Shown here in pieces: positions 2,106 to 55,307 of a DNA stretch of 64,000 nucleotides (positions within the stretch are counted from its first letter, which is position 1; each line of letters opens with the position of its first letter). Below the pieces are notes generated by a model. The model made no database searches, was not told where the DNA came from, and saw nothing but the letters and a program-made list of their open reading frames with translations. Position numbers and translations under genes: made by a program. Origin of the DNA: Arabidopsis thaliana (lineage: Eukaryota > Streptophyta > Magnoliopsida > Brassicales > Brassicaceae). Location: the NCBI RefSeq assembly GCF_000001735.4, contig NC_003075.7, positions 9,053,001-9,117,000 on the forward strand, given 5' to 3'.

Positions 2106-4028
2106 ATGGAAATTGATGATGTTTATACACTCTTTCAAACGCGTGGTCTAAAATGTGCTGGCTGCAATCTTGGTAAAGACTACTATAGTGATGGTTACTG
2201 TTGCTTTCGTTCTGGACTCTTCTTTCACAAAGAGTGCGCCGAATCCAATCCAAAAATTTCCAGCTTTTACCATCCACAACATTCTTTGTACATCAAGATA
2301 CTTGCAGAAAATGAAGAAGCCTATGGAAATTGCAAGCTTTGTAGAGGTAACTTGCCAAAAATATATTACTATTGTTTAATATGTGATTTTTCCATCGATT
2401 TGATATGTGCAAAAAAAGAAGTTATGGAAATAATTGAGGGTCCAAAAGCACATGAGCATCCTTTATTCCTTCTTCCAAAGATGACTATGTTTACTTGTCA
2501 TTTATGTGGGCTGCAAGATGACCGGTTCCCTTATGCATGTAACTTATGCAATTTGAGTTTTCACAAAGATTGTGCCGAATGCACACCAGAGATGAAGTAT
2601 TCTTGTCATCCTAAACACATTCTCAAGCGTCTCACACGTGTTCCAAGGTACACAGATGGAAAATGTTGTTTGTGTGAAAACAAACTTCATTACATATTTT
2701 TATCATTGTTCTATTTGCAATTTCAGTGTGGATATCAATTGTGCAAAGAATCCACTTCCTTCCACTATTGTTCACCTTAAGGCTCATGCATTTACTCACC
2801 CTTATGCCTCAACGGAATTTTGTTTGTGATGCTTGTGGAATGGATGACGACCCAAATCCATATGTATGTCTTCCATGTAATTTCATGATCCATCAAAATT
2901 GTATTGATAAACCAAGCATCATAAAGATTTATCGTCATGATCATCGTCTTTATTACAATCATTGCCTTGACGCTGGAGATTGGAAATGTGGAGTGTGTAA
3001 TAAAGAGATAAACTGGACATGTGGGGCTTATTCTTGTTCAAAGTGTCCTGATTTTGCCATTCATCCAAGATGTGTCAAAAGGTTTGGCATTTGGGATGGG
3101 ATTGAACTCGAAGGAATACCAGAAAATAATGTAGAGGTAAAGTCATACGAGGTGATAGAAGAAGGAGAAATAAGGCATTTTAGTCACGAGAAGCATAATT
3201 TAAAGCTTCAAGAAGAAAGTGATGCTAATAATGAATGCATGTTGTGTAAAGCATGCAATTATCCTATATATTCTAACTCATTCTACAGTTGCATGGAATG
3301 TGATGATTTCATCCTTCATAAAAAATGTGCACCTCCGGAAAAGAAAATAGATCCCTTCTACAACATGTTGACGAACTTTAATCACAAATGATATTCGCAT
3401 AAGCATTTGCAATGCTTGTCAAAACGTTTCTCAAGGTTTTACTTACGTAAGTGATGATCATAAGATTATCTTGGATGTGCGATGCGGTTCTATTTCGGAA
3501 CCTTTTGTCCATGAAAGTCATCCTCTTCATTCGTTATACATCAGCCGCTCAACAGAAGAAAAGTTTTGTATTGCTTGCGGAGATAAGGCTACTATGGTTT
3601 TGAGTTGCGAGGAGTGTGACTTTATTTTAGACATTAAATGTTCTAATTTGCCAAAGATGGTTAAACACAAAAATGATAAAGACCATTTGTTGTCCCTATG
3701 TTACGGAGAAAAAACAAGTGAGCAGTACTGGTGCGAGATATGCGAGGAAACACTAAAGCGAAAAGAAATGGTTTATTGCATGTGATGATTGTGACATTAC
3801 TTTTCATATCAAGTGTCGCTTGGAGACTTCGTAGGGATGTATCAGGAAGCTAAGGATGAGTCATTCCAAACTTATATGATTCTTAATAATCATATAAATC
3901 GACCAGTTTGTTGCTGTTGTGAGTCTCGCTGTCAATTCTCTTCCATCTTAAGGTTTTATGGAAAATTAATATGTTCTCTACAATGTTTGCAAAAGAAGTT
4001 CCAAGAATTACATGATGATATATCCTGA
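2106..4028 (+). pseudogene. DC1 (Cys/His-rich C1) domain gene, source copy, decayed
   Basis: DC1 proteins are plant-specific zinc-binding repeat proteins, often linked to stress or hormone signalling; the function of this one is unknown. The frame starts MEIDDVYTLFQTRG and then shows roughly ten Cys/His repeats of form CxxC...YxCxxCxFxxHxxC, with no introns. Compared with the near-identical copy at 19889-22031 the frame is lost several times: an extra T near 2700, two bases missing near 2790, small changes near 3330-3345 and 3374, a scrambled patch at 3748-3780, and one base missing near 3818. Outside those patches the two copies are almost identical through the 3' UTR to 4250. Each lesion is accompanied by adjacent substitutions, which is odd for random decay and leaves sequence error possible. 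An intact homologue would have about 640 residues. Confidence 0.85.
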
Positions 4029-4250
4029 GATTCAGATTGCTAGTGATTTACCTGAAGTGGGTTTGAAGCAAATTCATTATTGACACATGTTGCTTCGCCT
4101 CAAATGTTATGCACACAGAACATGTAAACATAAAATTATATTTGTAAAAGTTAAATATTTATAATGTTTGTTTTCATAAGATTTACTTTATTTTTTTTAA
4201 TAATCTCTTGAATGTCTGTACCTTTTCTTTTGTTAAAGATTGTTCTTTAT
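4029..4250 (+). other. 3' UTR of the source DC1 gene; right limit of the captured segment
   Basis: This segment is identical to 21810-22031 and stops matching at TTGTTCTTTAT (4240-4250). The shared limit probably marks the region near the natural poly(A) site of the DC1 transcript. Confidence 0.65.
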
Positions 4251-4465
4251 CTGTTGTCAAAGTTTGTTCAATATATATATAAAATTTGATCAATTAATTA
4301 AAATTTACTGAAACGGTTTCTTTGAAAGAAACACACCTATACTATAGATTTTCCCTCAAAAAATAAACACTATATACAAATCCTCTATTTTTTTTCTTCC
4401 CTCCGGATTTATATACAAACACCTTTTCCTTTAAAAAGAGTTGGACGATAGAGAGACAAGTATGA

Positions 4466-7974: not shown

Positions 7975-8268
7975 TTTATGTTTTTTTTAACATACGCTTA
8001 TTAAATTATGTTACAAAAAGTCAAGACACACATGTTTACATAGTACCGTAACATTTTACATTGCATAAGCTTCAACATAAAGTACTTCTAGATAGATAAC
8101 AGACACGCACACTTAGTTGTGCTCTAAAGCTTATTCTACGTCAAAACCGTTGCAACAAGCTTTCGCATATGTGTTGGTCTGAACTTTTTTCGCAAGCAGA
8201 AACAAAAACTATCACACTTATTTACAAACTCACCATGGATCTTCAACATAACTTGAGGTTTTCACCGC
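7975..8268 (-). repeat. Conserved 3' flank of small-gene family (copy 1)
   Basis: This block matches 10880-11162 at roughly 85-90 percent by eye and more weakly 27610-27839. Shared landmarks are CCGTAACATTTTACATT, ATGTGTTGGTCTG and CTCACCATG. It shows that the genes spread by segmental duplication. Confidence 0.7.
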
Positions 8269-8676
8269 TTATTTACGAAATTCCTTTATAAGCACCCCTC
8301 CATAGAGTTGGACCGCCTCATCGCAGTTAATAACCCGTCCTTTCGGCCTCTCAAACCTGTTGGGATTGGCAACAAAAGGACGGGTACCACCATAGTATTG
8401 AATATGTTCTGTGGGGTGAGAAACAACAGGTTCTTTTATAGTTGACTCAGGTGCGTACATATAAATAGCTCGACCATAACTATAAGTACTAGTCGCCTCT
8501 CTTACGGTATAGATTTTTGGACCACCATATTTGTAAGCACTTTGGGTAAAGCGAGAAGGGGACTCGTCTTTAGGATCATATGGTTTAGTGGTTAGGTTTG
8601 GGGACTTACCATACACCTTATCGACCATTTCAAAAGCCTTTTGAGCTATCCTTGTATTCCTATCCTTTTGAGCCAT
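8269..8676 (-). CDS. Small protein of unknown function, family member 1
   Basis: A single exon of 135 residues from MAQKDRNTRIAQKAFE to VLIKEFRK. No signal peptide or membrane segment is visible. It is rich in Tyr, Pro and charged residues, with the motif YKYGGPKIYTVREAT in the middle and a conserved C-terminal block, INCDEAVQLYGGVLIKEF. I do not recognise a domain. Two close relatives lie at 11163-11432 and 27840-28251, and a distant one at 14898-15134. A TATA-like element (TTTATATAG, about 8773) sits about 100 bp upstream. The family is probably restricted to Brassicaceae; I recall At4g15990 at this place. Confidence 0.75.
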   Translation of the reverse strand: MAQKDRNTRIAQKAFEMVDKVYGKSPNLTTKPYDPKDESPSRFTQSAYKYGGPKIYTVREATSTYSYGRAIYMYAPESTIKEPVVSHPTEHIQYYGGTRPFVANPNRFERPKGRVINCDEAVQLYGGVLIKEFRK

Positions 8677-10879
8677 TGGTGAAGCACAAAGAAGAGAAGA
8701 AAGGTCTTTTGGTTTAGTGTATTATCTTTGTTTCTTTGGTTTTAGTTTGATTTGAAAAGGAAGCCAATGCCGTTTATATAGAAAAATCTTCTAAAGAAAC
8801 CAACATATTCTTTTAACAAGAGCATTTCGTTACTTTTCTATCCACTTGCATTTTCTTATGAACACTCGTTTTCTTTTACTATATCAAATATTTAATATGA
8901 AGTTGTAACTTCTGATATATTCCTAATTATGAAAAATATCGATACGTGTAATCATCACAAAGATGGAATCAAATTTTAATAATCATTCGTATCAAAGAAT
9001 TTAAATAATCACTATTCCCTCAATAATGTATATCTCCTTCCAAAGCCATGGACGGTTTGACGGTCTGCCCTATCCTTTCCTTTCATTCCCATATATGATA
9101 TATTATGATTGCTTATATTTTACAGATTTAACATATCACATGTTAAATTTATCTCATATATATATTACTTAGCTGCAAATTGACTATTTGAACTCAATTT
9201 AAGATGACCATCATTCGCTCTATAATTAATAGTTTTGTTTCATACTGTTCTTCTATATGAACTTACTCATGGTTCTACCTGAAGGGAAAAATTTCAAAAA
9301 ACTATATCAATAAGAAAGAAAAAATCATAAACTATATTCCGTGTATTTCATAAGAGACGCCAACAGAAACAGAAACAAGAAAACTACTCAATCATGGCTA
9401 AAAAAACATCAACGTAAAAGAAACGAATTGTAGAAATATATATGGAAAAAAGTATGAAGAAAGTAAACAAGCAGGTTTAGAGATTACTTCTCGATAACAG
9501 ATACACAGATGTAAGATCTTATCCCTTGAAAGTAAAAGCAAAGTGAAAAAGAAATCTAAAGCTTGGAGGCGAGTTGCTTTGTTTGGAGACGTCCCTAAGG
9601 AGGCTCTTTGGTTGCTGCTTTCTATCTCTTCTGTTTGCTGGATTCGTTCTCCCTTAGAAAGTTCGTTTAAAACGTGTATATATTGGCTTCGGGCGTCGGT
9701 ATTAGGTTTAGGCCTTTAGGGTACTTAAAAGTCAAAACAAAACACTTCGTTTTACTTCAATGAGGGAATATTGGAGCTTGGCAGTGGCACCGGCCGCGAC
9801 GTGGAGGTGCGGCGATGAGGTTTTTGGCCATAGACGGATGCTTGCAGGACACGGCGATCAAGGCTTTGTCCGTTGTTGGTTTTCTTTCTCTGATGCGGCT
9901 GGACATGGCTCCATTCAATCGGGTATAAAAACGTTTGGATTGTCGGTTTGGATACTTCAAGGCGGATCCTGACTCTACTAGCTTTTCATAGACTCCAAGA
10001 ACGCTTTATTTGGTGGTCGAGAAGGCCTTCAACGGATGCAAACTTCTAATGGTACGAAACTGTCTTTGAATGCTCATCATAATTCCCTTCATTTATAATT
10101 TTTATCTTGTAAAAACTACTCTAATTAAAGCATAAAATGTGATAAACACTTAGTCACTTATTGAAAACATTAGAAAACTATAGCTAAAATAGACGAAAAT
10201 AAGATGTTATCATCACACAACTGTCCACATCATATATTCATATGGCTTGAGAGAAACTGAAGAAGACATGGTGAATTCCCCTTCAGCCTTCATCTGCGCG
10301 AATAGTCAGAAACCGACTTTAATCCCTCAAGAAACTAGGCTCGACGTATATGGCCGATGGCTTGATACTCTGGTTTGGTTCACGCAGGTAGTTGCTTATG
10401 ATAGGATCTGCTCTGTTTTAGCTCCCAATGCTGTGTGTTTTCACTTTGAGTCTTGTAGATATTTCAATTTAAAATGCATATTATGTAACCAAAGTTTTTG
10501 ACTGAATAAAGTTTTATATTCTCTTAAAAAAGAAATAACAACTGGTTTCTTAATCTACTAAACAAATAGGGAAAATATTATGCACTACATTTGAGGTTCC
10601 ATTATACATTAAAAATATATCATTTTCAGCATCAAATTATTGTTTGCTTTCATTCCTTGTTTCTATTAGTTAATACTATTGGATTCTATCAAATTACTAA
10701 ATTTCCTTATATTAATATATTTATTTTACATTAATACTTCAAAATATTTATTAAAAGTCTTAAAACATAAAATAATAATCAAATTTAGCTAATATATATA
10801 CATTTCTTTTTTACAAGAGTCTCTAAAATATTAGGCCCAGCTTGTTGCATATATGACATGATTATTAAAGTCTTTAAAT
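8677..10879. other. Intergenic with a GC-richer island at about 9570-10050
   Basis: The stretch 9000-9080 contains a block (GGACGGTTTGACGGTCTGCC) that recurs upstream of family member 2 at 11690-11710. The GC-richer island at 9570-10050 has overlapping short open frames on both strands (plus 9760-9972, minus 9757-9960) without recognisable motifs; it may be a gene relic or a noncoding transcript. A further 84-codon frame at 10247-10501 is also unrecognised. The rest is AT-rich. Confidence 0.45.
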
Positions 10880-11162
10880 ACATGCTTATTTATGTTTACA
10901 AAGAGTCAAAGACGCATATCTTTACATATATAGCACCGTAACATTTTACATTACATAAGCTTTAACATATAGTACTTCTAGCTAGATACATAACAGACAC
11001 AAACACTTGGTTGTGATCTAAAGCTTATTCTAAGTGAAAACCGTTACAACAAGCTTTAGAATATGTGTTGGTCTGCACTTTTTCCGAAAGCAGAAATAAA
11101 ACGTATCACACTTATTTACAAACTCACCATGCATCTTCAACATAACTTGAGGTTTACACCGC
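10880..11162 (-). repeat. Conserved 3' flank of small-gene family (copy 2)
   Basis: Counterpart of 7975-8268, with the same orientation relative to the gene. Confidence 0.7.
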
Positions 11163-11432
11163 TTATTTACGAAATTCCTTTATAAGCACTCCTCCATAGA
11201 GTCTGACCGCCTCGTCGCAGGTAATAGGCCGTCCTTTCGACCTCTCAAACGGGTTGGGATTACCTACAAAAGGCCGGGCACCACCAAAGAAGTGGATATG
11301 TTCCGTCTGGCGAGAAGCAACCGGTTCTCTAACAGTTGAATCAGGTAAGAATCGGTAAGGAAGCCGCTTATCAATCATTTCGAAACCCTTTTGAGCGACC
11401 CATCTATTCCTATCCTTTTGAGCCATTGCCAT
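11163..11432 (-). CDS. Small protein of unknown function, family member 2 (internally shortened)
   Basis: An 89-residue single exon, MAMAQKDRNRWVAQKGFEM to VLIKEFRK. It matches family member 1 at both ends (MAQKDRN, AQKxFEM, and the C-terminal VRLYGGVLIKEF block) but lacks about 45-50 central residues, including the YGGPKIYTVREAT motif, without losing frame. The start could be Met1 or Met3; Met3 matches member 1. The conserved 3' flank lies at 10880-11162 and a shared upstream block at about 11620-11715. Function unknown. Confidence 0.7.
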   Translation of the reverse strand: MAMAQKDRNRWVAQKGFEMIDKRLPYRFLPDSTVREPVASRQTEHIHFFGGARPFVGNPNPFERSKGRPITCDEAVRLYGGVLIKEFRK

Positions 11433-11950
11433 CGAAGCTTAAAGAGGATTAGAAAGGTATTTTGTTTTAAACTTTTAGTGTGTTATCTATGCATCTTCCG
11501 TTTTAGTTTATATAGCAAAAACTTTTAACAAGATCTTTTTTTTTGTGGAATCAAATTTAAAATAAATTTGTAAGTGCTGTTATATTCGTTACGAAAAGTA
11601 TATATGATAAGTGTAATTATCACAAACATTGAATCAAATTCAGTAAATCATTATTCCCTCACTAATGTATATATCCGTCAAAGATCACGGACGGTTGGAC
11701 GGTCTGCCCGATCCTTAATAGGTGATCATAAGAAAATCTTACCAATCGATGATAAAATTTTGCTCTGTTTTTTTTTATGTCAAGAACATGTAACCTAATG
11801 AAATTCATCTAAATGATCAGAAGGAAACCATAATACCACAACCCACTAAAAATAAGAGAATTTTTTGTCTAAAATAAACTTGTCTTTTATTTTTATTTTT
11901 ATAAAACTTAGGATCTTTATGATTACTTTCACGTGGGATTAAATAAAATT
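11433..11950. other. Intergenic, promoter side of family member 2
   Basis: Holds the family's shared upstream block near 11640-11715 (GGACGGTTGGACGGTCTGCC). Nothing else is recognised. Confidence 0.5.
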
Positions 11951-15935: not shown

Positions 15936-15940
15936 GAAGT
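15936..15940. repeat. Target site duplication, left (GAAGT)
   Basis: GAAGT immediately precedes the 5' LTR and is repeated at 25897-25901 just after the 3' LTR. A 5-bp duplication is the norm for Ty1/copia integration. It shows that everything between entered, or at least is bounded, as one insertion. Confidence 0.9.
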
Positions 15941-16355
15941 TACTAGACCACTGCTCCAAAACGACATCACTCCTGCAAGTGGACCTGCAACAGAAACAAA
16001 AGTGTTGGGCCAAAACACACTTAAGCCCAAACCATTTAAGTTCAAGACGGAAACGACGACGTCCAGCTCTCAACGTTCGTCTTCAATGTTCCTGCAAAAA
16101 GACAAAGGAAACAGAGAAACAGAGATGACGAAAGCAAAAGCTTGTACGGAGACGACCAAGCTTTCAAACCAATTCTCAGCCCTTGATGGGTTAGAGACAA
16201 CAGGATGAAGACACCTGTAAGGGTTTAGCTAGGGTTTCAGTTCTCAAGTGTTCTTGTATAAAAGCTAAAGCTTGAGCCGCTTGTAAAACTCTTAAGAATG
16301 AATGAAATCTGAAAGTTAAGTTACAAAGCTTCTCATAGATTCATAAATCTCTTCA
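15941..16355 (+). repeat. 5' LTR of the copia element
   Basis: 415 bp, beginning TACTAGACCACTGCTCC and ending ATAAATCTCTTCA. The start is TA rather than the canonical TG. A TATA-like TATAAAAGC lies at about 16257-16265. It matches the 3' LTR at all but about three positions. Confidence 0.93.
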
Positions 16356-16367
16356 TGGTATCAGAGC
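16356..16367 (+). other. Primer binding site (initiator tRNA-Met)
   Basis: TGGTATCAGAGC directly follows the LTR and is complementary to the 3' end of plant initiator methionine tRNA, the standard primer for plant copia elements. It fixes the LTR's right border. Confidence 0.92.
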
Positions 16368-16369
16368 TC

Positions 16370-17185
16370 ATGGAAAGAAGATCCATGGAGCTCTATACTG
16401 TTCCTCAACTCAACATTTCAAATTGCGTTACAGTCACTCTTACGCAGCAGAACTATATTCTGTGGAAGAGTCAGTTCGAATCTTTCCTTTCTGGTCAAGG
16501 CTTGCTTGGGTTTGTCACTGGATCTATTTCTGCACCGTCACCAACCATTCCTGTTCCAGATATCAATGGTGTCACCACAGACAGACCAAATCCAGAGTTT
16601 GATGTTTGGTTCAAGACAGACAAGGTTGTCAAGTCTTGGCTTCTAGGGTCCTTTGCTGAAGATATCCTGAGTGTTGTTGTGAACTACGTCACTGCTCATG
16701 AGGTATGGTCTACTCTTGCAAATCACTTCAATAGAGCTACTTCATCTAGGCTATTTGAGCTTCAAAGGCGTTTACAAACTCTAGAAAAGAAAGATAAACC
16801 TATGCAAGTCTATCTTAAGGAGTTACAAACCATCTATGAACAGTTAGCTTCTGTAGGGAGTCCAGTTCCTGAGAAGATGAAAATCTTTGCTGCTCTTAAT
16901 GGTCTAGGTAGGGAATATGAGCCTATCAAAACAAGTATTGAAGGTTCCATTGATATTCCTCCCACTCCTAAGCTTGATGAAATCATGCCTAGACTCAACG
17001 GTTATGATGATAGACTTCAGGCTTATGCAGCAAACTCTGATGTTAGTCCTCATCTAGCTTTCAATACAGTTCAAGCTAACTCTGTCTTCTACACCAACCG
17101 CGGCAGAGGTCAAGGGAACCGTCGGTTTGGTGGGTCACGAGGCCAAGGTTCCTTCTCCACTCGGGGTCGTGGCTTCCATCAGTAG
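16370..17185 (+). CDS. copia gag (capsid) region
   Basis: The frame begins close after the primer binding site and carries the typical plant copia Gag opening (TLTQQNYILWKSQFESFLSG) followed by the UBN2-type helical region and an Arg/Gly-rich tail (GRGQGNRRFGG). A CCHC zinc knuckle (CxxCGKxGHxxxxC) lies just downstream at about 17230-17300. Part of a broken fossil element. Confidence 0.8.
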   Translation: MERRSMELYTVPQLNISNCVTVTLTQQNYILWKSQFESFLSGQGLLGFVTGSISAPSPTIPVPDINGVTTDRPNPEFDVWFKTDKVVKSWLLGSFAEDILSVVVNYVTAHEVWSTLANHFNRATSSRLFELQRRLQTLEKKDKPMQVYLKELQTIYEQLASVGSPVPEKMKIFAALNGLGREYEPIKTSIEGSIDIPPTPKLDEIMPRLNGYDDRLQAYAANSDVSPHLAFNTVQANSVFYTNRGRGQGNRRFGGSRGQGSFSTRGRGFHQ

Positions 17186-17308
17186 CTCTCATACAATGAT
17201 TCTTCTTCCAACGCCTCTGCAGAACGTCCAACATGTCAGATTTGTGGGAAACATGGTCATCATGCTCTCAACTGCTGGCACAGATTTGATAATAGTTATC
17301 AGCTTGAT

Positions 17309-19879
17309 GTGTTACCACAGGCTCTCCCAGCAACGCAGATCACAGACATTACTGATCACTCTGGCAGCGAATGGGTCACAGACAGTGCTGCTACTGCTCA
17401 CATCACCAACTCGCCACGTCATCTGCAACAGACAAAGTCCTATGCTGGTTCTGATTCTGTAATGGTTGGCAATGGGAATTTTCTACCTATCACTCATACC
17501 GGTTCTACAAGTATTGGTTCTACTTCAGGTAAGCTTCATCTTAAAGATGTATTGGTTTGTCCTCTAATTACTAAATCTTTGTTGTCTGTGTCAAAAGTCA
17601 CAAAGGATTATCCCTGCATTTTTGAGTTTGATTGTGATGAAGTTCGTGTGCGTGATAAGGAAACCAAGAAGCTTCTTCTTCAGGGAAGTAATCGAGATGG
17701 ACTCTATGTGCTGGATGAACCAAAGCTTCTGGTGTTCTACTCTTCTCGCCAAGTTGCAGCGTCTGATGAAGTTTGGCACAGACGGTTAGGACACCCAAAT
17801 CCCCATGTTCTCCAGCAGCTATCCTCAACAAAGTCCATTCTTATTAATAAACACAGCAAGGCTATTTGTGAAGCATGTCAGTCTGGTAAAAGCTCAAGAC
17901 TGTCATTCTCTGCATCATCTTTTGTTGCTAGTAGACCCTTAGAGAGAATTCATTGTGATCTCTGGGGTCCTTCTCCTGTTATGTCAGTTCAAGGATTCAG
18001 ATACTATGTTATATTTATTGACAATTACTCTAGATATTGCTGGTTCTATCCTCTCAAGTTAAAGTCTGATTTCTACACAATCTTTGCAAAGTTTCAAGCT
18101 TTGGTTCAGAATCAGCTACAAAGCAAAATCTCAATTTTTCAATGTCATGGAGGGGGAGAATTCACCAGTAAGGTCTTTCTCAATCATCTTCAAGAACATG
18201 GGATTCAACAATACATCTCCTGTCCTTACACTCCCCAACAGAATGGTCTTGCTGAAAGAAAACACAGACACATTACTGATTTTGGTTTATCTATGCTTTT
18301 TCAAGGCAAAGTCCCTCAAAAACATTGGGTAGAAGCCTTTTATACTACAAACTTTCTCAGTAATCTGCTTCCTCATACTGCTCTTACTGATGCTAAAAGT
18401 CCTTTTGAGCTGTTAAACAAGAAGAAACCGGATTATCAGGCCTTGAGAATCTTTGGATGTGCTTGTTTTCCGACACTCCGAGATTATGCACAACACAAGT
18501 TTGATCCTAAGTCCTTAAAATGTGTGTTCTTGGGCTACAATGAAAAATATAAGGGCTACCGGTGTCTTCTTCCTACCACAGGCAGAGTCTACATAAGTCG
18601 TCATGTCATTTTTGATGAACACTCCTTCCCTTTCTCAGATACTTATATGCATCTGCAACCCACTGGTGTTACACCTTTGCTCTCTGCCTGGCAACAAAGT
18701 TTTATGCCTCAGACAACTGCTTCTTCTACAGCCTCTGCAACTGCAACCTCTCCATTCAATGCTGCAGAGATTCAGGTTTCTCCTGTGATTACCAGTAACA
18801 ACAACACAGGCGCTTCAGTGTTAGAAAATGGTTCATCTCAGCTGCCTATACAGAATTCATCAGTCTTGTCTACTGTGGCTAGTGAAGAGAGTTCTGAGTG
18901 TACGGAGAGCATCAATCTCTTACCTATTGGCAATAGCTCTTCTTCACTTGCTAACAGGACGGATAATGCTGATACTTCTCCTCTTCAAGAAGCTGCAACA
19001 GAAACAAACAGCTCTACTGTGCAAGAAGCTGCAGAATCAACAACTAGCTCTACAATGCAAGAACCTGCTTCAAATCAGTCTACTCATCCAATGATAACAC
19101 GGTCTAAGAAAGGTATTACAAAGCCTAATCCACGGTATGGACTTCTTACACACAAAGTTAAATATGCAGAACCAAAAACGGTTACAGAAGCTCTTAAACA
19201 CCCGGGATGGACTGCTGCAATGCATGAAGAGTATGATAATTGTACAGAAGCACAAACGTGGAGTCTAGTTCCGTATACTTCTGATATGAATGTCCTTGGA
19301 AGTAAATGGGTGTTTCGAACCAAGTTAAATGCAGATGGGTCTTTGGACAAGTTAAAAGCTCGCTTGGTTGCAAAAGGATTTGATCAAGAAGAGGGAATTG
19401 ATTACTTAGAAACATACAGCCATGTGGTAAGGTCTGCAACAGTCAGAATGGTGCTTCATGTTGCAACAGTCATGGACTGGGAAGTGAAACAAATGGATGT
19501 GAAGAATGCATTTCTTCATGGGGACCTCACTGAAACTGTTTACATGCTTCAACCAGCTGGCTTTGTGAATAAGGAAAAACCTACTCATGTCTGCCATCTA
19601 CATAAAGCTCTTTATGGTTTAAAACAGGCTCCTCGGGCTTGGTTTGACAAATTTAGCAATTACTTGCTTGAATTTGGTTTCAACTGCAGTATTAAAGATC
19701 CATCTCTGTTCATTTATTTAAAAGGGAATGATCTTATACTCTTACTTCTTTATGTTGATGACATGGTTTTAACAGGTAGTAACTCTGCAACTATGATCAA
19801 GCTGCTTGAGGATTTGAATACACAATTTCGTATGAAAGATCTTGGGCAAATGCATTATTTTCTTGGGACACAAGCTTAA
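17309..19879 (+). CDS. copia pol, segment A: protease, integrase, reverse transcriptase
   Basis: Domains in order: aspartic protease (WVTDSAATAHIT), pre-integrase zinc motif (HRRLGHPNPHVL), integrase core (IHCDLWGPSP, TPQQNGLAERKHRH), a Ser/Thr/Gln-rich spacer, and reverse transcriptase with YVDDM. It lacks RNase H because the DC1 segment begins here. The stretch 17313-19891 is repeated at 22042-24620. Confidence 0.88.
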   Translation: MLPQALPATQITDITDHSGSEWVTDSAATAHITNSPRHLQQTKSYAGSDSVMVGNGNFLPITHTGSTSIGSTSGKLHLKDVLVCPLITKSLLSVSKVTKDYPCIFEFDCDEVRVRDKETKKLLLQGSNRDGLYVLDEPKLLVFYSSRQVAASDEVWHRRLGHPNPHVLQQLSSTKSILINKHSKAICEACQSGKSSRLSFSASSFVASRPLERIHCDLWGPSPVMSVQGFRYYVIFIDNYSRYCWFYPLKLKSDFYTIFAKFQALVQNQLQSKISIFQCHGGGEFTSKVFLNHLQEHGIQQYISCPYTPQQNGLAERKHRHITDFGLSMLFQGKVPQKHWVEAFYTTNFLSNLLPHTALTDAKSPFELLNKKKPDYQALRIFGCACFPTLRDYAQHKFDPKSLKCVFLGYNEKYKGYRCLLPTTGRVYISRHVIFDEHSFPFSDTYMHLQPTGVTPLLSAWQQSFMPQTTASSTASATATSPFNAAEIQVSPVITSNNNTGASVLENGSSQLPIQNSSVLSTVASEESSECTESINLLPIGNSSSSLANRTDNADTSPLQEAATETNSSTVQEAAESTTSSTMQEPASNQSTHPMITRSKKGITKPNPRYGLLTHKVKYAEPKTVTEALKHPGWTAAMHEEYDNCTEAQTWSLVPYTSDMNVLGSKWVFRTKLNADGSLDKLKARLVAKGFDQEEGIDYLETYSHVVRSATVRMVLHVATVMDWEVKQMDVKNAFLHGDLTETVYMLQPAGFVNKEKPTHVCHLHKALYGLKQAPRAWFDKFSNYLLEFGFNCSIKDPSLFIYLKGNDLILLLLYVDDMVLTGSNSATMIKLLEDLNTQFRMKDLGQMHYFLGTQA

Positions 19880-19891
19880 TTTCACGAGAAT
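17313..19891 (+). repeat. Duplicated pol segment, copy A (2579 bp)
   Basis: Same length as 22042-24620, and I found no difference between them by eye; the six-frame translations agree on both strands. It runs from TACCACAGGCTCTCC to TTCACGAGAAT. Confidence 0.9.
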
Positions 19892-22031
19892 TGATGATGT
19901 TTATACACTCTTTCAAACGCGTGGTCTAAAATGTGCTGGCTGCAATCTTGGTAAAGACTACTATAGTGATGGTTACTGTTGCTTTCGTTCTGGACTCTTC
20001 TTTCACAAAGAGTGCGCCGAATCCAATCCAAAAATTTCCAGCTTTTACCATCCACAACATTCTTTGTACATCAAGATACTTGCAGAAAATGAAGAAGCCT
20101 ATGGAAATTGCAAGCTTTGTAGAGGTAACTTGCCAAAAATATATTACTATTGTTTAATATGTGATTTTTCCATCGATTTGATATGTGCAAAAAAAGAAGT
20201 TATGGAAATAATTGAGGGTCCAAAAGCACATGAGCATCCTTTATTCCTTCTTCCAAAGATGACTATGTTTACTTGTCATTTATGTGGGCTGCAAGATGAC
20301 CGGTTCCCTTATGCATGTAACTTATGCAATTTGAGTTTTCACAAAGATTGTGCCGAATCCACACCAGAGATGAAGTATTCTTGTCATCCTAAACACATTC
20401 TCAAGCGTCTCACACGTGTTCCAAGGTACACAGATGGAAAATGTTGTTTGTGTGAAAACAAACTTCATTACATATTTTATCATTGTTCTATTTGCAATTT
20501 CAGTGTGGATATCAATTGTGCAAAGAATCCACTTCCTTCCACTATTGTTCACCTTAAGGCTCATGAGCATTTACTCACCCTTATGCCTCAACGGAATTTT
20601 GTTTGTGATGCTTGTGGAATGGATGACGACCCAAATCCATATGTATGTCTTCCATGTAATTTCATGATCCATCAAAATTGTATTGATAAACCAAGCATCA
20701 TAAAGATTTATCGTCATGATCATCGTCTTTATTACAATCATTGCCTTGACGCTGGAGATTGGAAATGTGGAGTGTGTAATAAAGAGATAAACTGGACATG
20801 TGGGGCTTATTCTTGTTCAAAGTGTCCTGATTTTGCCATTCATCCAAGATGTGTCAAAAGGTTTGGCATTTGGGATGGGATTGAACTCGAAGGAATACCA
20901 GAAAATAATGTAGAGGTAAAGTCATACGAGGTGATAGAAGAAGGAGAAATAAGGCATTTTAGTCACGAGAAGCATAATTTAAAGCTTCAAGAAGAAAGTG
21001 ATGCTAATAATGAATGCATGTTGTGTAAAGCATGCAATTATCCTATATATTCTAACTCATTCTACAGTTGCATGGAATGTGATGATTTCATCCTTCATAA
21101 AAAATGTGCTGACCTCCCAAAAAAGAAAATAGATCCCTTCTACAACATGTTGACTACTTTAATCACAAATGATATTCGCATAAGCATTTGCAATGCTTGT
21201 CAAAACGTTTCTCAAGGTTTTACTTACGTAAGTGATGATCATAAGATTATCTTGGATGTGCGATGCGGTTCTATTTCGGAACCTTTTGTCCATGAAAGTC
21301 ATCCTCTTCATTCGTTATACATCAGCCGCTCAACAGAAGAAAAGTTTTGTATTGCTTGCGGAGATAAGGCTACTATGGTTTTGAGTTGCGAGGAGTGTGA
21401 CTTTATTTTAGACATTAAATGTTCTAATTTGCCAAAGATGGTTAAACACAAAAATGATAAAGACCATTTGTTGTCCCTATGTTACGGAGAAAAAACAAGT
21501 GAGCAGTACTGGTGCGAGATATGCGAGGAAGCACTAAACGCAAAGAAATGGTTTTATTCATGTGATGATTGTGACATTACTTTTCATATCAAATGTACGC
21601 TTGGAGACTTCGTAGGGATGTATCAGGAAGCTAAGGATGAGTCATTCCAAACTTATATGATTCTTAATAATCATATAAATCGACCAGTTTGTTGCTGTTG
21701 TGAGTCTCGCTGTCAATTCTCTTCCATCTTAAGGTTTTATGGAAAATTAATATGTTCTCTACAATGTTTGCAAAAGAAGTTCCAAGAATTACATGATGAT
21801 ATATCCTGAGATTCAGATTGCTAGTGATTTACCTGAAGTGGGTTTGAAGCAAATTCATTATTGACACATGTTGCTTCGCCTCAAATGTTATGCACACAGA
21901 ACATGTAAACATAAAATTATATTTGTAAAAGTTAAATATTTATAATGTTTGTTTTCATAAGATTTACTTTATTTTTTTTAATAATCTCTTGAATGTCTGT
22001 ACCTTTTCTTTTGTTAAAGATTGTTCTTTAT
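19889..22031 (+). CDS. Captured DC1 (Cys/His-rich C1) gene inside the copia element
   Basis: The open frame runs to the stop at 21807-21809 and encodes about ten DC1 repeats (CxxC...YxCxxCxFxxHxxC), zinc-binding modules of unknown role here. It matches the decayed gene at 2111-4250, including 222 bp of 3' UTR. The native start is lost: the copy begins inside the second codon. The nearest in-frame ATG is at 19842 in pol sequence read out of the pol frame, giving 655 residues with 16 foreign ones at the N-terminus (MGKCIIFLGHKLNFTR); the next is deep inside the domain array. No DC1 promoter came along, so expression would depend on the element. I recall a DC1 locus (At4g16015) annotated here. 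Confidence 0.85.
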
Positions 22032-22041
22032 ATAAAGATTG
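22032..22041 (+). other. Filler at right DC1/pol junction
   Basis: ATAAAGATTG fits neither the DC1 3' flank nor pol. It repeats the nearby TAAAGATTG of the DC1 3' UTR (about 22013-22021), as slippage or a repeated short copy at a strand jump would produce. Confidence 0.6.
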
Positions 22042-24608
22042 TACCACAGGCTCTCCCAGCAACGCAGATCACAGACATTACTGATCACTCTGGCAGCGAA
22101 TGGGTCACAGACAGTGCTGCTACTGCTCACATCACCAACTCGCCACGTCATCTGCAACAGACAAAGTCCTATGCTGGTTCTGATTCTGTAATGGTTGGCA
22201 ATGGGAATTTTCTACCTATCACTCATACCGGTTCTACAAGTATTGGTTCTACTTCAGGTAAGCTTCATCTTAAAGATGTATTGGTTTGTCCTCTAATTAC
22301 TAAATCTTTGTTGTCTGTGTCAAAAGTCACAAAGGATTATCCCTGCATTTTTGAGTTTGATTGTGATGAAGTTCGTGTGCGTGATAAGGAAACCAAGAAG
22401 CTTCTTCTTCAGGGAAGTAATCGAGATGGACTCTATGTGCTGGATGAACCAAAGCTTCTGGTGTTCTACTCTTCTCGCCAAGTTGCAGCGTCTGATGAAG
22501 TTTGGCACAGACGGTTAGGACACCCAAATCCCCATGTTCTCCAGCAGCTATCCTCAACAAAGTCCATTCTTATTAATAAACACAGCAAGGCTATTTGTGA
22601 AGCATGTCAGTCTGGTAAAAGCTCAAGACTGTCATTCTCTGCATCATCTTTTGTTGCTAGTAGACCCTTAGAGAGAATTCATTGTGATCTCTGGGGTCCT
22701 TCTCCTGTTATGTCAGTTCAAGGATTCAGATACTATGTTATATTTATTGACAATTACTCTAGATATTGCTGGTTCTATCCTCTCAAGTTAAAGTCTGATT
22801 TCTACACAATCTTTGCAAAGTTTCAAGCTTTGGTTCAGAATCAGCTACAAAGCAAAATCTCAATTTTTCAATGTCATGGAGGGGGAGAATTCACCAGTAA
22901 GGTCTTTCTCAATCATCTTCAAGAACATGGGATTCAACAATACATCTCCTGTCCTTACACTCCCCAACAGAATGGTCTTGCTGAAAGAAAACACAGACAC
23001 ATTACTGATTTTGGTTTATCTATGCTTTTTCAAGGCAAAGTCCCTCAAAAACATTGGGTAGAAGCCTTTTATACTACAAACTTTCTCAGTAATCTGCTTC
23101 CTCATACTGCTCTTACTGATGCTAAAAGTCCTTTTGAGCTGTTAAACAAGAAGAAACCGGATTATCAGGCCTTGAGAATCTTTGGATGTGCTTGTTTTCC
23201 GACACTCCGAGATTATGCACAACACAAGTTTGATCCTAAGTCCTTAAAATGTGTGTTCTTGGGCTACAATGAAAAATATAAGGGCTACCGGTGTCTTCTT
23301 CCTACCACAGGCAGAGTCTACATAAGTCGTCATGTCATTTTTGATGAACACTCCTTCCCTTTCTCAGATACTTATATGCATCTGCAACCCACTGGTGTTA
23401 CACCTTTGCTCTCTGCCTGGCAACAAAGTTTTATGCCTCAGACAACTGCTTCTTCTACAGCCTCTGCAACTGCAACCTCTCCATTCAATGCTGCAGAGAT
23501 TCAGGTTTCTCCTGTGATTACCAGTAACAACAACACAGGCGCTTCAGTGTTAGAAAATGGTTCATCTCAGCTGCCTATACAGAATTCATCAGTCTTGTCT
23601 ACTGTGGCTAGTGAAGAGAGTTCTGAGTGTACGGAGAGCATCAATCTCTTACCTATTGGCAATAGCTCTTCTTCACTTGCTAACAGGACGGATAATGCTG
23701 ATACTTCTCCTCTTCAAGAAGCTGCAACAGAAACAAACAGCTCTACTGTGCAAGAAGCTGCAGAATCAACAACTAGCTCTACAATGCAAGAACCTGCTTC
23801 AAATCAGTCTACTCATCCAATGATAACACGGTCTAAGAAAGGTATTACAAAGCCTAATCCACGGTATGGACTTCTTACACACAAAGTTAAATATGCAGAA
23901 CCAAAAACGGTTACAGAAGCTCTTAAACACCCGGGATGGACTGCTGCAATGCATGAAGAGTATGATAATTGTACAGAAGCACAAACGTGGAGTCTAGTTC
24001 CGTATACTTCTGATATGAATGTCCTTGGAAGTAAATGGGTGTTTCGAACCAAGTTAAATGCAGATGGGTCTTTGGACAAGTTAAAAGCTCGCTTGGTTGC
24101 AAAAGGATTTGATCAAGAAGAGGGAATTGATTACTTAGAAACATACAGCCATGTGGTAAGGTCTGCAACAGTCAGAATGGTGCTTCATGTTGCAACAGTC
24201 ATGGACTGGGAAGTGAAACAAATGGATGTGAAGAATGCATTTCTTCATGGGGACCTCACTGAAACTGTTTACATGCTTCAACCAGCTGGCTTTGTGAATA
24301 AGGAAAAACCTACTCATGTCTGCCATCTACATAAAGCTCTTTATGGTTTAAAACAGGCTCCTCGGGCTTGGTTTGACAAATTTAGCAATTACTTGCTTGA
24401 ATTTGGTTTCAACTGCAGTATTAAAGATCCATCTCTGTTCATTTATTTAAAAGGGAATGATCTTATACTCTTACTTCTTTATGTTGATGACATGGTTTTA
24501 ACAGGTAGTAACTCTGCAACTATGATCAAGCTGCTTGAGGATTTGAATACACAATTTCGTATGAAAGATCTTGGGCAAATGCATTATTTTCTTGGGACAC
24601 AAGCTTAA
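22042..24608 (+). CDS. copia pol, segment B: protease to reverse transcriptase
   Basis: Same domains and residues as segment A, from the protease motif through YVDDM. Sequence beyond the duplicated block (24621 onward) carries the rest of pol. Fossil; no functional claim is made. Confidence 0.85.
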
Positions 24609-24620
24609 TTTCACGAGAAT
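22042..24620 (+). repeat. Duplicated pol segment, copy B (2579 bp)
   Basis: Repeat of 17313-19891 in the same orientation. Unlike copy A it continues without interruption into the RNase H region. Confidence 0.9.
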
Positions 24621-24674
24621 GGCCTATTTCTATCTCAGCAGAAGTATGCTGAAGACCTTCTCACCATTGCAGCA

Positions 24675-25488
24675 ATGGACGAATGCTCCCCAATGCCAAC
24701 TCCACTGCCACTTCAGCTTCACAAAGTTCCTCATCAAGAAGAACTCTTTGCTAATCCAACTTATTTCCGGAGTCTTGCAGGGAAACTTCAGTACTTGACA
24801 TTGACAAGGCCGGATCTTCAGTTTTCTGTAAACTTTGTGTGCCAAAAGATGCATCAACCAACAGTTTCAGATTACAATCTTCTCAAGCGGATTCTTCGGT
24901 ATGTCAAAGGAACTCTATCAATGGGAATCCACTTCTCCAAGCACTCTGATTTCCAGCTCCGGGTTTACACTGAAAAAGACCCTGCTTTTAGTCTTCGTGC
25001 TTACAGTGATAGTGACTGGGGTGGTTGTAAAGATACTCGTCGTTCCACAGGAGGCTATTGCACATTTCTTGGCACTAACCTCATCTCCTGGTCGTCTAAG
25101 AAGCAGCCGACTGTTTCTCGAAGCTCGACTGAAGCAGAATATCGATCACTCTCAGAAACAGCTCAGGAAATGACTTGGATCTGTCATTTACTTCGAGAGC
25201 TTGGCATACCTCTTCCTGTCACACCCGAGCTCTATGGAGACAACTTATCTTCTGTGTACCTTACTGCCAATCCTGCCTTCCACGCTCGTAGCAAACACTT
25301 TGAATTCGACTATCATTATGTCCGTGAAAGAGTCGCCTTGGGATCTTTGGTCGTGAAACACATTCCTGCTCATCAACAAATTGTTGACATCTTCACGAAG
25401 TCTTTGCCTTATGAAGCTTTCTGTAATCTCAGGTTCAAACTTGGTGTGGATTTACCACCCACACCGCGTTTGAGGGGGAGTACTAGAC
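24675..25488 (+). CDS. copia pol 3' part: end of RT and RNase H
   Basis: Contains the RT thumb (YFRSLAGKLQYLTLTRPDLQ) and the copia RNase H signature (YSDSDWGGCKDTRRSTGGYC, SSTEAEYRSL), ending just before the polypurine tract. Confidence 0.85.
25469..25480 (+). other. Polypurine tract
   Basis: TTTGAGGGGGAG sits immediately before the 3' LTR, the normal position of the plus-strand primer in copia elements. It fixes the LTR's left border. Confidence 0.85.
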
Positions 25489-25896
25489 CACTGCTCCAAA
25501 ACGACATCACTCCTGCAAGTGGACCTGCAACAGAAACAAAAGTGTTGGGCCAAAACACACTTAAGCCCAAACCATTTAAGTTTAAGACGGAAACGACGAC
25601 GTCCAGCTCTCAACGTTCGTCTTCAATGTTCCTGCAAAAAAGACAAAGGAAATAGAGAAACAGAGATGACGAAAGCAAAAGCTTGTACGGAGACGACCAA
25701 GCTTTCAAACCAATTCTCAGCCCTTGATGGGTTAGAGACAACAGGATGAAGACACCTGTAAGGGTTTAGCTAGGGTTTCAGTTCTCAAGTGTTCTTGTAT
25801 AAAAGCTAAAGCTTGAGCCGCTTGTAAAACTCTTAAGAATGAATGAAATCTGAAAGTTAAGTTACAAAGCTTCTCATAGATTCATAAATCTCTTCA
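25481..25896 (+). repeat. 3' LTR of the copia element
   Basis: 416 bp, from TACTAGACC to CTCTTCA, followed directly by the GAAGT target duplication. It differs from the 5' LTR by about two substitutions (both C to T) and one homopolymer base. Confidence 0.93.
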
Positions 25897-25901
25897 GAAG
25901 T
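25897..25901. repeat. Target site duplication, right (GAAGT)
   Basis: Pairs with 15936-15940. Confidence 0.9.
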
Positions 25902-27609: not shown

Positions 27610-27839
27610 ACATACTAGCATTAACACCGTAACATGTTATCTTAGGTAAGCTTCAAATTATATTGCTTTTAATACATAGCAGACCCCAACACTTGGTAGT
27701 GATCTAAACCTTATTTTAAGTAGCAAACACATATGTCTTGGTTTGCACATTTCCCGAAGGCAGAAATAAATACTATATCATACATAATTAGCTTCTTATA
27801 ATTAATTGCATTTTCAACATAAATTGCATTTTATCCCCC

Positions 27840-28251
27840 TTAATTACGAAATTCCTTTATAAGAACCCCTCCATAGAGCTGAACCGCCTTATCGCAGTTA
27901 ATAGCCCGTTCTTGTGGCCTCTCAAAGCGGTCAACATGGCCAATAAAAGGACGAGCACCACTGAAGTATTGAATACGATCCGTGGGATGATAAACCACCG
28001 GTTTTACAATAGTTGACTCATATGAAAACTGAGAAATGACTCGGCGAGCAGTAATATCTAGTTGCCTCTTTTACAGTATAAGATTTTGGACCACCATATT
28101 CGTATGAATTTTGGTTAAAATACGAAGGAAACTCGTTTCTAGGAACATATGGTTTAGGGGTAAGTTTATGAGACTTACCATACATGTTATCGACTATTTC
28201 AAAAGCCTTTTGGGCAATTCTTGTATTCCTATCATTTTGAGCCATTGCCAA
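27840..28251 (-). pseudogene. Small protein of unknown function, family member 3 (frameshifted)
   Basis: It starts MAMAQNDRNTRIAQKAFEIVD and follows family member 1 through YEYGGPKSYTVKEAT, then loses frame at about 28020-28060. The C-terminal block reappears in another frame at 27840-28020 (ESTIVKPVVYHPTDRIQYF, then LYGGVLIKEFRN and a stop). One small indel is enough to explain it, so it is either a recent pseudogene or a sequence error. As it stands it would make a 77-residue truncated protein. The 3' flank at 27610-27839 is conserved with members 1 and 2. Confidence 0.7.
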
Positions 28252-30300
28252 GGAAGAACAAAAAAGAGAAGAAAGGTGTTTTTGTCTTAGTGTTATCTTT
28301 GTTTCTTCGGTTTTAGTTTGCTTTGGGAAACAAAGCCAATGAGCTTCCTTATATAAGAAAAGGATAATGAACCTACGTACTCATCTGTTGACTTATCTTT
28401 TAGGAATTATCCCTTCACTTTACATGTAGTCTTTTTTTTTGTCTAAATATTTAATTCATTAATCAAAAGAGGATGTACAAAGATTTTTTTTTTTATATGT
28501 ACAAAGTTACATAGTCATTTTTATTAGATTATCCCTTTTTTTAGTGGTTAATTGAACATAAACTTAAATTTGACATTACAAAGGGGTCCTTTTTTCCCAA
28601 ACAAATACTGTTTCGGTAAAGGAAGACAAGAATAGACAGTATATGTAGTAGATATAAATCTGACATTAAATTCCTTTTGACCCAAAAAAATGAACATTGT
28701 ATTACTTTATAAAGAATTAAGACAGTAGTAGGCGGTAGTGGCGACACCAATTTGCTTCTCATGGTACGACATATATATCTTGTCCGCATTTGACTTATCG
28801 ATATCAGAGAGTCATCACGGAACCATGTTCACTCTTAAAAATAGGGGGTTAAATAAGCGGATCCTTCACAATAAATTAGTTCAGTTCTATAGAGGCCTAA
28901 TTTAGTTTGTTTTTATTGGTGGTTGAATCATCTACCTTATGCAAATTATTTCAAAGCAAATGGTGTTTCCCCACTACAAGCAAATTCAACCATTCATAGG
29001 TTCTTGAAAATTTGATCCGAAGAGTAACCATGCGATGAATGTATTTTTTTAGAATTAACAAAAGACTAATAAATCAAATTTAAATGAAAGAAATTGCTCA
29101 AATATTATAAATTTCATGTTTGACAATTGATTATTCATATTCTTAAAAAAAAATAATAGGATAGTATAGTATAAAATTATAAATTATTTGAGTTGTTAAT
29201 TATAAATTATTTCGAAACGTTAGTTGTTCTGAAAATGATCTCTTAAATCTACGTAACTATCAATATTGACTCTATTTTTAATAGAGTCATAAGATTAGTT
29301 TAAAACGAATTATTTCAGCAAGAAAAACATTTTCCACAAATATGTAATAAAACTATGAAAGGCCCTAATCGTATTAAGAAAACAGATTTGAAATTATTTA
29401 ACAAGAAAAAACGTTTATGATTTCTGTTCCTAAAATATTCTCTTCAATTTTGGAGAGAAATGTTTTTGTTTTATAATCATCAAATGGTAAGCTTTTAAGA
29501 ATAATGTAGGGTCCTAATATCTGTCTAAAAATTGAAATATATATGGTGAAAATTTGGAGGAATAAAGAGAAATATCATTCTTTCTTATATTTTTTGAAAC
29601 GGCATGGGATGCTAAATGAAGTCTATACTCTATACATCAAGGATAAGCAATGTTGAGGAATAATAGAAGAAATTAACGGGATGCTAAATGGGAAGAAATA
29701 ATAGAGAATATAACAATGAGACCACTGGTCTTTTTTGCCTAGTGCAATTAACTTTCGCAAAATAGATTCCCTATCACCAAATTTGCATATATACTTCCAT
29801 TACACGTTTCATGCCTATGTAGACTGTTAGGATTACAAAGTCCAACAAAGTATCTTTTTAATTAAAAGTGCAGAGTCGAAGTAGCAGAGAGAGGAGATAC
29901 GGCTCCACTCTATCTTCTCATTCCTCTAATAATATTTACGCCACATTAGGCCACAAATATTTCCACGCATCTCAATACATAAAATTAAGGAAAATAAAAT
30001 TACGTACAACCTTCATTTTGTAAGAATTTACATCTCACTAATCATTTATACTATAAATCATATCATAAAATTCCCTTATAAGTATCAATTCCTCTATTTT
30101 TTTGCCATGATTTATTATATATTATATTCTATTTATACGATTTAATTAGTAATAATAAATATATACTTCTAGAATTTTTTTATATAATTCGAGAACCAAA
30201 AAGAGTACACATTTGTAATTTATTGTTCTTACATTATTATGAAAACTTTTTTTTTAGATTAATTTAAAGAGACGAGTTAGAGTAGGGCTTATAAACAAAT
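28252..30300. other. Long AT-rich intergenic region
   Basis: No gene seen. The first 100 bp are the promoter side of family member 3 and match the family (TTTGTTTCTTCGGTTTTAGT). The remainder is poly-A/T rich; a minus-strand open stretch at 28541-28789 has no motif. Confidence 0.5.
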
Positions 30301-30481: not shown

Positions 30482-31103
30482 ATGGTGTCGATCCATTTCC
30501 ACTCACGCTCTCGTGCAAGGAGAAAGTGTCGTCACACTGGTTACGGTAAGTCCGAATGAAAATGAGTATCCAATAATCTTTGATAGGTCTCTTCATTTTG
30601 GTACTTTAATAAACAGTTTGTCTTCGGTACTACTCTAGTTTTTTGGACTGCAACGTACTCTGGTTTGGTGGTACTGTAATATTATTTATGATCGATGAAA
30701 ATTATTTAGAAAGTTTTTCTGGTTTTCAGGTAAGGATACAATGGAGGCTTTGCGCCGAATAATGAAACGTTTGACGAGAAGGCTGAAAATGTTAAAACGC
30801 TTGCTAAAAAAGTTCTGTTGGAACAAGAAGATCGACAAGCTTGTGTACTACCATGACATGTTCATGAAGGTGAAAGGAAAAGTTTACAAGAACAAGTGTG
30901 TTCTTATGGAAAGCATGCACAAGTCTAGCAGGGAGAGAAAGTTTTCCGGAAGCGAGATGCGTTTGGCTCTGGTAACAATAAAATCATGTTTTATTAAAAT
31001 CTGTTCTGTATTTATTTTTGTATTCTTTGTTAGTTTGGGTGATTATATTTTGGTCATCTCACAGGAGCCTGAAGGAGAGAAGACTGCATCAGCACCTCAA
31101 TAA
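30482..31103 (+). CDS. Shortened eL19 (RPL19) family ribosomal protein
   Basis: Three exons, 30482-30545, 30730-30971 and 31065-31103, with GT/AG borders, give 114 residues. It opens MVS as eL19 does, but then jumps directly to HSRSRARRK, so about 55 N-terminal residues are missing. The central part matches eL19 well ([33 protein letters not shown]), and the basic C-terminal helix is shortened. Normal plant eL19 has about 210 residues. The gene is expected to bind 25S rRNA if expressed, but it has lost much of the globular domain, so a role in the ribosome is doubtful. The intact splice sites and retained promoter argue against a processed pseudogene. I recall At4g16030. Confidence 0.7.
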
Positions 31104-49739: not shown

Positions 49740-50077
49740 AGCTTTGCGTTGATAGTGAAGAATCAAAAAGAAATAAAGAAAGGGTTTTCGAGTTAGTCAA
49801 CCAAGAAAGTCCCTTCTTGACTCGATCTAAGACCAAAGTGCCTGGCCACAAGAATAATGTCTCTCTCGTTTTTATCTTTGTTTCCACGTTTCTCCACATT
49901 TCCTTTTTCCCTTATTATATAATCTTATGAAAATGGAAACGAAATATCTTTGTTATCAAATTTGTGCACAAGATTCTTTACTTTGCACCAATTATTTTTT
50001 CTTTACTTTTCCTTTGATGACCTATGTGAAAACCCTTTTGTTTCTTTTTGATTTTTTCACATATCAAAGCAAAAGCT
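49740..50077. promoter_or_regulatory. Bidirectional promoter region between DUF295 paralogs
   Basis: Only 338 bp separate the two divergent start codons, so both core promoters and 5' UTRs must fit here. It is T/A-rich, with TTTTTCACATATCAAAGC just before the plus-strand gene. Confidence 0.6.
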
Positions 50078-54986: not shown

Positions 54987-55307
54987 TGATATTTAGAGTC
55001 ATTTTCTAAACTCTAAATAAGGAGAGTGATATATAGCAAAAGTGAAATATCTTTCAGCTACTTTTGTTTGTTTTGTTGAAGGAAAATGAGAATCTGTATA
55101 GACACTGATCGTACATTTGTTTAATTACTGGGAAAACTTATGTAATTGAAACAGTTTGGAAAAAAAGAAAAAAAAAGTTGGTCGAAGAGAGTTTCTTCTG
55201 CTTTATGATCGTTATAGTTTCGTTATTGTGTATAATATATGAATGTGTAGACTGTGAGCGATTTGTATTTAAGTATAAGTAAATGATTAGGGCTTTAGTA
55301 ACAAGAT
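54987..55307. other. 3' UTR of DUF789 gene and tRNA upstream region
   Basis: Nothing beyond the expected 3' UTR. CAA motifs just before the tRNA fit plant tRNA initiation sites. Confidence 0.5.

What the first reader, a model, noticed from the sequence alone, without database searches (positions are those of the whole stretch)
15941..25896. A copia element that has captured a nearly complete host DC1 gene between two copies of its own pol
Seen: one LTR pair, one primer site, one polypurine tract and a matching GAAGT duplication frame an interior in which a 2.14-kb DC1 gene segment sits between two same-orientation 2579-bp pol copies. The source gene, with its own promoter, is 12 kb upstream. 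Known: retroelements occasionally transduce host sequence (maize Bs1 is the classic case), but capture of a whole multi-domain open frame with flanking pol duplication is rare in Arabidopsis as far as I know. Inference: it arose by template switching between packaged copia RNA and DC1 mRNA, then inserted here as one unit.
Basis: partly seen in the sequence, partly recalled or inferred. Interest (0 to 1): 0.9.

Follow-up and report, generated by a model that had tools for sequence, protein, structure and literature searches.

The report
Host gene copied inside a retrotransposon
A plant jumping element carries a nearly complete copy of a neighbouring host gene between two identical copies of part of its own code, and the sequence fits a local DNA repair or replication accident after the element landed better than capture of the gene's RNA.

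Summary
A copia element (15941-25896; one LTR pair, PBS, PPT, GAAGT duplication) holds a 2.14-kb DC1 segment between two direct pol copies of 2579 bp. Its proposed origin, template switching in a particle followed by insertion as one unit, fits less well than a DNA-level event in an element already resident here. (i) The likely donor lies 11.7 kb from the element; a random re-insertion would land that close about 2 times in 10,000. (ii) The LTRs have diverged (2 substitutions, 1 indel in 416 columns) while the pol copies show 0 differences in 2579 (Fisher p 0.019, or 0.0027 counting the indel). (iii) One junction has 3 nt of microhomology, the other a filler with 10 nt recopied from the DC1 end; both are weak signs. 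Best reading: break repair or replication template switching copied the nearby gene, then re-entered pol upstream, leaving a tandem pol duplication with DC1 as templated filler. RNA capture is not excluded: the insert is sense, intron-free and starts inside the coding sequence. Nor is an assembly or clone artefact. A new member of a known kind, of moderate interest.

The parts
2106..4250 (+). Likely donor: DC1 (C1_2) gene; copied part 2111-4250; reading frame broken in this sequence
   Evidence: BLASTN 99.2% to 19889-22031; difference clusters; C1_2 domains in both of the two ORF pieces scanned; three-frame reading
15936..15940 (.). GAAGT target-site duplication, left
15941..16355 (+). 5' LTR
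   Evidence: 99.3% to 25481-25896
16356..16369 (+). primer-binding-site-like TGGTATCAGAGCTC (initiator-tRNA-Met type, recalled)
16355..17185 (+). gag ORF, ends at an in-frame stop; the same frame continues into pol
   Evidence: Retrotran_gag_2 2.4e-17; frames
17313..19891 (+). pol copy 1 (gag_pre-integrs, rve, SH3, most of RVT_2); in-frame stop 19877-19879
19889..19891 (+). 3-nt AAT shared by pol and donor at the pol-DC1 junction
   Evidence: 3 nt or more in 6.2% of random joins
19889..22031 (+). captured DC1 segment; open frame 19842-21809; no donor ATG; first in-frame ATG 20202
   Evidence: (C1_2 with 8 stretches)
22032..22041 (+). junction filler; TAAAGATTGT (22033-22042) repeats 22015-22024
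22042..24620 (+). pol copy 2, identical to copy 1 (0 of 2579 columns differ); in-frame stop 24606-24608
   Evidence: domains
24621..25471 (+). remaining pol (rest of RT, presumed RNase H region), present once
   Evidence: ORF 24675-25655; no Pfam match to that ORF at E 0.001
25472..25480 (+). polypurine tract GAGGGGGAG
25481..25896 (+). 3' LTR
25897..25901 (.). GAAGT target-site duplication, right

Best explanation
A single, ordinary copia element of about 5.2 kb inserted at the GAAGT site (shown: one LTR pair, matching duplication; 9956 bp minus the 4729-bp spacing of the pol copies leaves 5227 bp). Some time later (inferred), a broken or stalled DNA end in its reverse-transcriptase region paired through AAT with the DC1 gene upstream in the same chromosome. 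It copied about 2.14 kb, slipped once and recopied 10 nt, and was then joined to, or resumed on, pol 2579 bp upstream of where it had left, probably on the sister chromatid. The result is a tandem duplication of pol with the DC1 copy as templated filler. The pathway (synthesis-dependent strand annealing, Pol theta end joining, or replicative template switching) is inferred and not resolved. No function for the product is implied; the inserted DC1 lacks the donor's start codon and upstream region.
For: The likely donor ends 11.7 kb from the element and 15.6 kb from the captured copy, in the same orientation; a random insertion falls within 12 kb of a given gene with probability about 1.6-2.0e-4 for genomes of 119-150 Mb (genome sizes assumed). 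LTR divergence is 2 substitutions in 415 (3 columns in 416) against 0 of 2579 between pol copies; 12-19 would be expected at the LTR rate; Fisher p 0.019 and 0.0027. Junction 1 has 3 nt of microhomology; junction 2 has a filler with a 10-nt copy of sequence 18 nt away, and matches of 10 nt or more occurred in 93 of 20000 shuffled fillers and 122 of 20000 random window 11-mers. There is no run of five or more A in 21990-22045. In human data none of 39 inspected duplications with a donor within 5 kb had poly(A)/T, against 17 of 29 with donors on other chromosomes (PMC2671141, section 7). Fillers copied from flanks are called a hallmark of Pol theta repair in Arabidopsis (PMC10923293, passages).
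Against: The insert is sense to the element, starts 5 nt into the coding sequence, ends about 222 nt past the stop, and shows no intron; an mRNA would give all of this, and a random genomic stretch often would not. Three-nt microhomology occurs in 6.2% of random joins, and junction 2 has only 1 nt. The filler lies in an imperfect 24-bp tandem repeat of the donor end (4222-4269), so simple slippage, by a reverse transcriptase too, could make it. Gene conversion between the pol copies could have erased their age. The LTR comparison rests on 2-3 changes. Donor and copy differ at 18 columns although the pol copies differ at none, which does not fit a single recent event unless the donor's clustered changes are sequence errors or later decay. 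The distance (15.6 kb) and length (2.14 kb) exceed the proximal class of PMC2671141 (<5 kb, at most 619 bp). That the copy at 2106-4250 is the true donor could not be checked against the rest of the genome.
Confidence: 0.66

Rival explanations
1. RNA-level capture. During minus-strand synthesis in a virus-like particle the reverse transcriptase left copia RNA at 17313, copied DC1 mRNA, and returned to copia RNA farther 3', duplicating pol; the chimeric cDNA then integrated here as one unit.
For: Sense orientation; the captured part begins inside the coding sequence and shows no intron; one LTR pair with matching target duplication; microsimilarity-guided switching between LTR-element RNA and cellular mRNA is a described route (PMC5408686, passages); abnormal template switching and the maize Bs1 capture are described in PMC13317346 (section 4).
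Against: Integration within 11.7 kb of the likely donor gene by chance about 2e-4; LTRs diverged but pol copies identical; no poly(A) trace; both pol copies carry the same in-frame stop, so if it predates the switch the RNA came from a defective element needing help in trans.
Confidence: 0.2
2. Artefact: a rearranged clone or misassembly around identical 2.58-kb repeats, or a wrong copy number of the 4729-bp pol-DC1 unit.
For: 0 of 2579 differences between the pol copies; the inserted DC1 has its near-identical copy only 15.6 kb away; no reads or second assembly could be examined.
Against: The junction carries about 10 nt of filler continuing neither parent, and captured and donor DC1 differ at 18 columns, so this is not a plain software duplication.
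Confidence: 0.1
3. A chimeric copia-DC1 cDNA recombined homologously into a resident plain copia element at this site.
For: Would explain identical pol copies next to older LTRs.
Against: Still leaves the closeness of the donor unexplained and needs two rare events.
Confidence: 0.04

Closest known systems
[quoted passage not shown]
   Same: Donor in cis, no poly(A), microhomology and filler at junctions
   Different: There <5 kb and at most 619 bp for the proximal class; here 15.6 kb and 2.14 kb, coupled with a 2.58-kb tandem duplication inside a retrotransposon
Maize p2/p1 filler-DNA chimeric gene (PMC2686159)
   Same: Plant break repair with filler copied from nearby, giving a chimeric gene
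   Different: 50-bp filler with deletion, not a gene-sized insert with duplication
Maize Bs1 and LTR-mediated retrocopies (PMC13317346, PMC5408686)
   Same: Host coding sequence inside an LTR element
   Different: By PMC13317346 Bs1 holds segments of three host genes, none with a full-length ORF; here one nearly whole gene, adjacent donor, duplicated pol
Copia (Ty1/copia) LTR retrotransposons
   Same: LTRs, 5-bp duplication, PBS, PPT, integrase before reverse transcriptase
   Different: Internal pol duplication and host insert; in-frame stops

Membership tests
Copia LTR retrotransposon | paired direct LTRs with 5-bp target duplication | tested here: met
Copia LTR retrotransposon | copia-type gag, and integrase upstream of RT (RVT_2) | tested here: met
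   Retrotran_gag_2; gag_pre-integrs, rve, SH3, RVT_2 in that order
Copia LTR retrotransposon | RNase H at the 3' end of pol | tested here: inconclusive
   ORF 24675-25655 gave 0 Pfam families at E 0.001
mRNA capture by template switching (LTR-mediated retrocopy) | sense insert lying within the donor transcript | tested here: inconclusive
   sense, and inside CDS plus about 222 nt 3'; transcript ends unknown
mRNA capture by template switching (LTR-mediated retrocopy) | intron loss relative to donor | not testable with these tools
   donor and copy are colinear without large gaps, so there is no intron to lose
mRNA capture by template switching (LTR-mediated retrocopy) | chimera formed before integration, so duplicated pol at least as diverged as the LTRs | tested here: not met
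   0/2579 vs 2/415 or 3/416, p 0.019 / 0.0027; gene conversion could mimic this
mRNA capture by template switching (LTR-mediated retrocopy) | donor unlinked to the integration site, as random integration predicts | tested here: not met
   11.7 kb apart
Repair-mediated proximal duplication | donor close in cis | tested here: inconclusive
   linked at 15.6 kb, but beyond the 5-kb cut-off of PMC2671141
Repair-mediated proximal duplication | microhomology or filler at junctions, no poly(A) | tested here: met
   3 nt AAT; 10-nt recopied filler; no A run of 5 or more; each sign is weak by itself
Repair-mediated proximal duplication | plain acceptor site without insert in relatives | not testable with these tools
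   no whole genome is held for this window

The most novel reading that the evidence does not exclude
An RNA-born chimera: a copia particle captured an almost full-length DC1 mRNA with an open multi-domain frame through two template switches, and the product, LTR-gag-pol-DC1-pol-LTR, could be mobilised in trans as a gene-carrying retrotransposon.
Probability: 0.18. Interest if true: 0.65.

Novelty: new member of a known kind. Interest (0 to 1): 0.42.

Why it matters
A host gene inside an LTR element is easily read as RNA capture. This locus suggests that a DNA repair or replication accident in a resident element can produce the same picture, target duplication included. Donor distance and the relative age of LTRs and internal duplicates offer a simple way to tell the two apart.

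Tried and rejected
Rejected: two separate copia insertions flanking a DC1 gene (the outer LTRs share GAAGT, and no 20-mer of the LTR lies between them). Rejected: transduction by read-through (the donor is 11.7 kb upstream, with a pectinesterase gene on the opposite strand between). The filler as proof of Pol theta was weakened after finding that it sits in an imperfect tandem repeat. A span test on the donor's difference clusters was not significant (13%).

Searches that gave no relative: pol in viral contigs (no pattern match) and genome contigs (1 pattern match, not confirmed by tblastn); DC1 in viral contigs (2 pattern matches, not confirmed); the pol-DC1 junction in viral contigs (0 matches). 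Papers naming AT4G16015 or AT4G16020, both codes recalled: 0 each. In the listings for DC1 with copia (9 of 9 listed) and for template-switch capture (25 of 30 listed, 20 of 30 listed) I recognised none as this locus from titles and abstract starts; those papers' texts were not searched further, apart from the ones cited. Further listings were seen.

Full report
OBSERVATION. Self-comparison of the window found the three matches that define the structure: LTRs 15941-16355 / 25481-25896, pol 17313-19891 / 22042-24620, and DC1 2111-4250 / 19889-22031. Column-by-column alignment gave 3 differing columns of 416 for the LTRs (two C/T substitutions and one indel in an A run), 0 of 2579 for pol, and 18 of 2147 in 7 clusters for DC1. 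GAAGT borders both ends, TGGTATCAGAGCTC follows the 5' LTR, and GAGGGGGAG precedes the 3' LTR. Pfam gave copia-type gag, then gag_pre-integrs, rve, SH3 and RVT_2 in each pol copy, and C1_2 with 8 stretches plus C1-like_CT in the captured frame (nine proteins scanned, of which one, 24675-25655, had no match).

STATE OF THE PARTS. gag and pol lie in one frame interrupted by a stop at 17183-17185; both pol copies also share an in-frame stop (19877-19879, 24606-24608). The captured DC1 frame runs open from 19842 to 21809, but without the donor ATG; its first in-frame ATG is at 20202, leaving 535 residues. The donor frame is broken by several small indels in this sequence. All 7 difference clusters lie between 2581 and 3816, and none in the other 904 bp. 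Seven random points fall in so short a span 13% of the time, so the span itself is not significant. Five changes packed within about 30 bp (3750-3778) look to me like a stretch of poor base calls rather than decay, but that is inference. As I read the three frames, the neighbouring pectinesterase exons show no obvious breaks.

JUNCTIONS. Pol to DC1: AAT (19889-19891) is shared by both parents; 3 nt or more occurs in 6.2% of random joins between the element and the upstream region. DC1 to pol: DC1 identity ends at 22031 and pol identity starts at 22042; the filler contains TAAAGATTGT, an exact copy of 22015-22024. A match of 10 nt or more to the flanks arose in 93 of 20000 shuffled fillers and 122 of 20000 random window 11-mers. 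Without the filler this junction has 1 nt of microhomology. The donor end is itself an imperfect 24-bp tandem repeat, so slippage is a sufficient cause and the filler is only weak support for a repair pathway.

RNA OR DNA. For RNA: the insert is sense, intron-free (as the donor is) and begins just inside the coding sequence, which a random genomic stretch would rarely do. For DNA: first, the likely donor is 11.7 kb from the element. Second, an element that integrated as a finished chimera should show pol copies at least as diverged as its LTRs; at the LTR rate 12-19 differences were expected and 0 seen (Fisher p 0.019 for substitutions only, 0.0027 with the indel). Gene conversion between the copies, or the small LTR sample, could undo this. 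Third, there is no poly(A) trace. I judge the DNA-level event at 0.66 and RNA capture at 0.20; the weighing is mine.

PUBLISHED PARALLELS. PMC2671141 (abstract, passages and section 7): 824 of 1,136 human duplicons had donors within 5 kb, and none of 39 inspected proximal ones had poly(A)/T, their junctions being of repair type; but proximal inserts were at most 619 bp, so this case is larger and farther. PMC10923293 (passages): templated fillers mark Pol theta repair in Arabidopsis. PMC2686159 (passages): filler DNA made a chimeric maize gene. PMC13317346 (section 4) and PMC5408686 (passages) describe RNA-based capture by LTR elements, including Bs1.

LOCUS. The window holds PMEI/pectinesterase exons, a plant mobile domain gene, a class 3 lipase, KIB1-4 propeller genes and an ARR1-like response regulator. 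I recall this order from A. thaliana chromosome 4, from At4g15980 to ARR2 (At4g16110); At4g15980 is listed as AtPME43 in PMC8990755 and as PME43 in PMC4844286 (one passage each). The species was not confirmed by any tool. If this is the reference Col-0 sequence, the locus will be in public annotation, possibly with the inserted DC1 listed as a gene; I could not check.

VERDICT. Structure real in the sequence given; origin more likely post-insertion DNA copying than RNA capture; artefact possible until spanning reads are seen.

Noticed in passing
window 2581-3816: All 18 differing columns between donor and captured DC1 fall here in 7 clusters and break the donor frame; possibly poor base calls or real decay of the donor.
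   Followed up: partly
window 4222-4269: Imperfect 24-bp tandem repeat at the donor end, where the copied segment stops.
   Followed up: partly
window 8006-8769, 10890-11469, 27622-28341: Diverged repeats (73-86% identity), one overlapping ORF 28018-28380 on the minus strand, which has no Pfam match.
   Followed up: no
window 30699-31103: Short ORF with a partial ribosomal L19e C-terminal match, perhaps a remnant.
   Followed up: no
window 48463-51301: Two KIB1-4 propeller genes in inverted orientation, 79-81% identical over two stretches.
   Followed up: no
window 40764-40870: 24-bp tandem repeat, 4.3 copies, coding an acidic stretch of the plant mobile domain protein.
   Followed up: no
window 55307-55382: tRNA-Thr (AGT) gene.
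   Followed up: no
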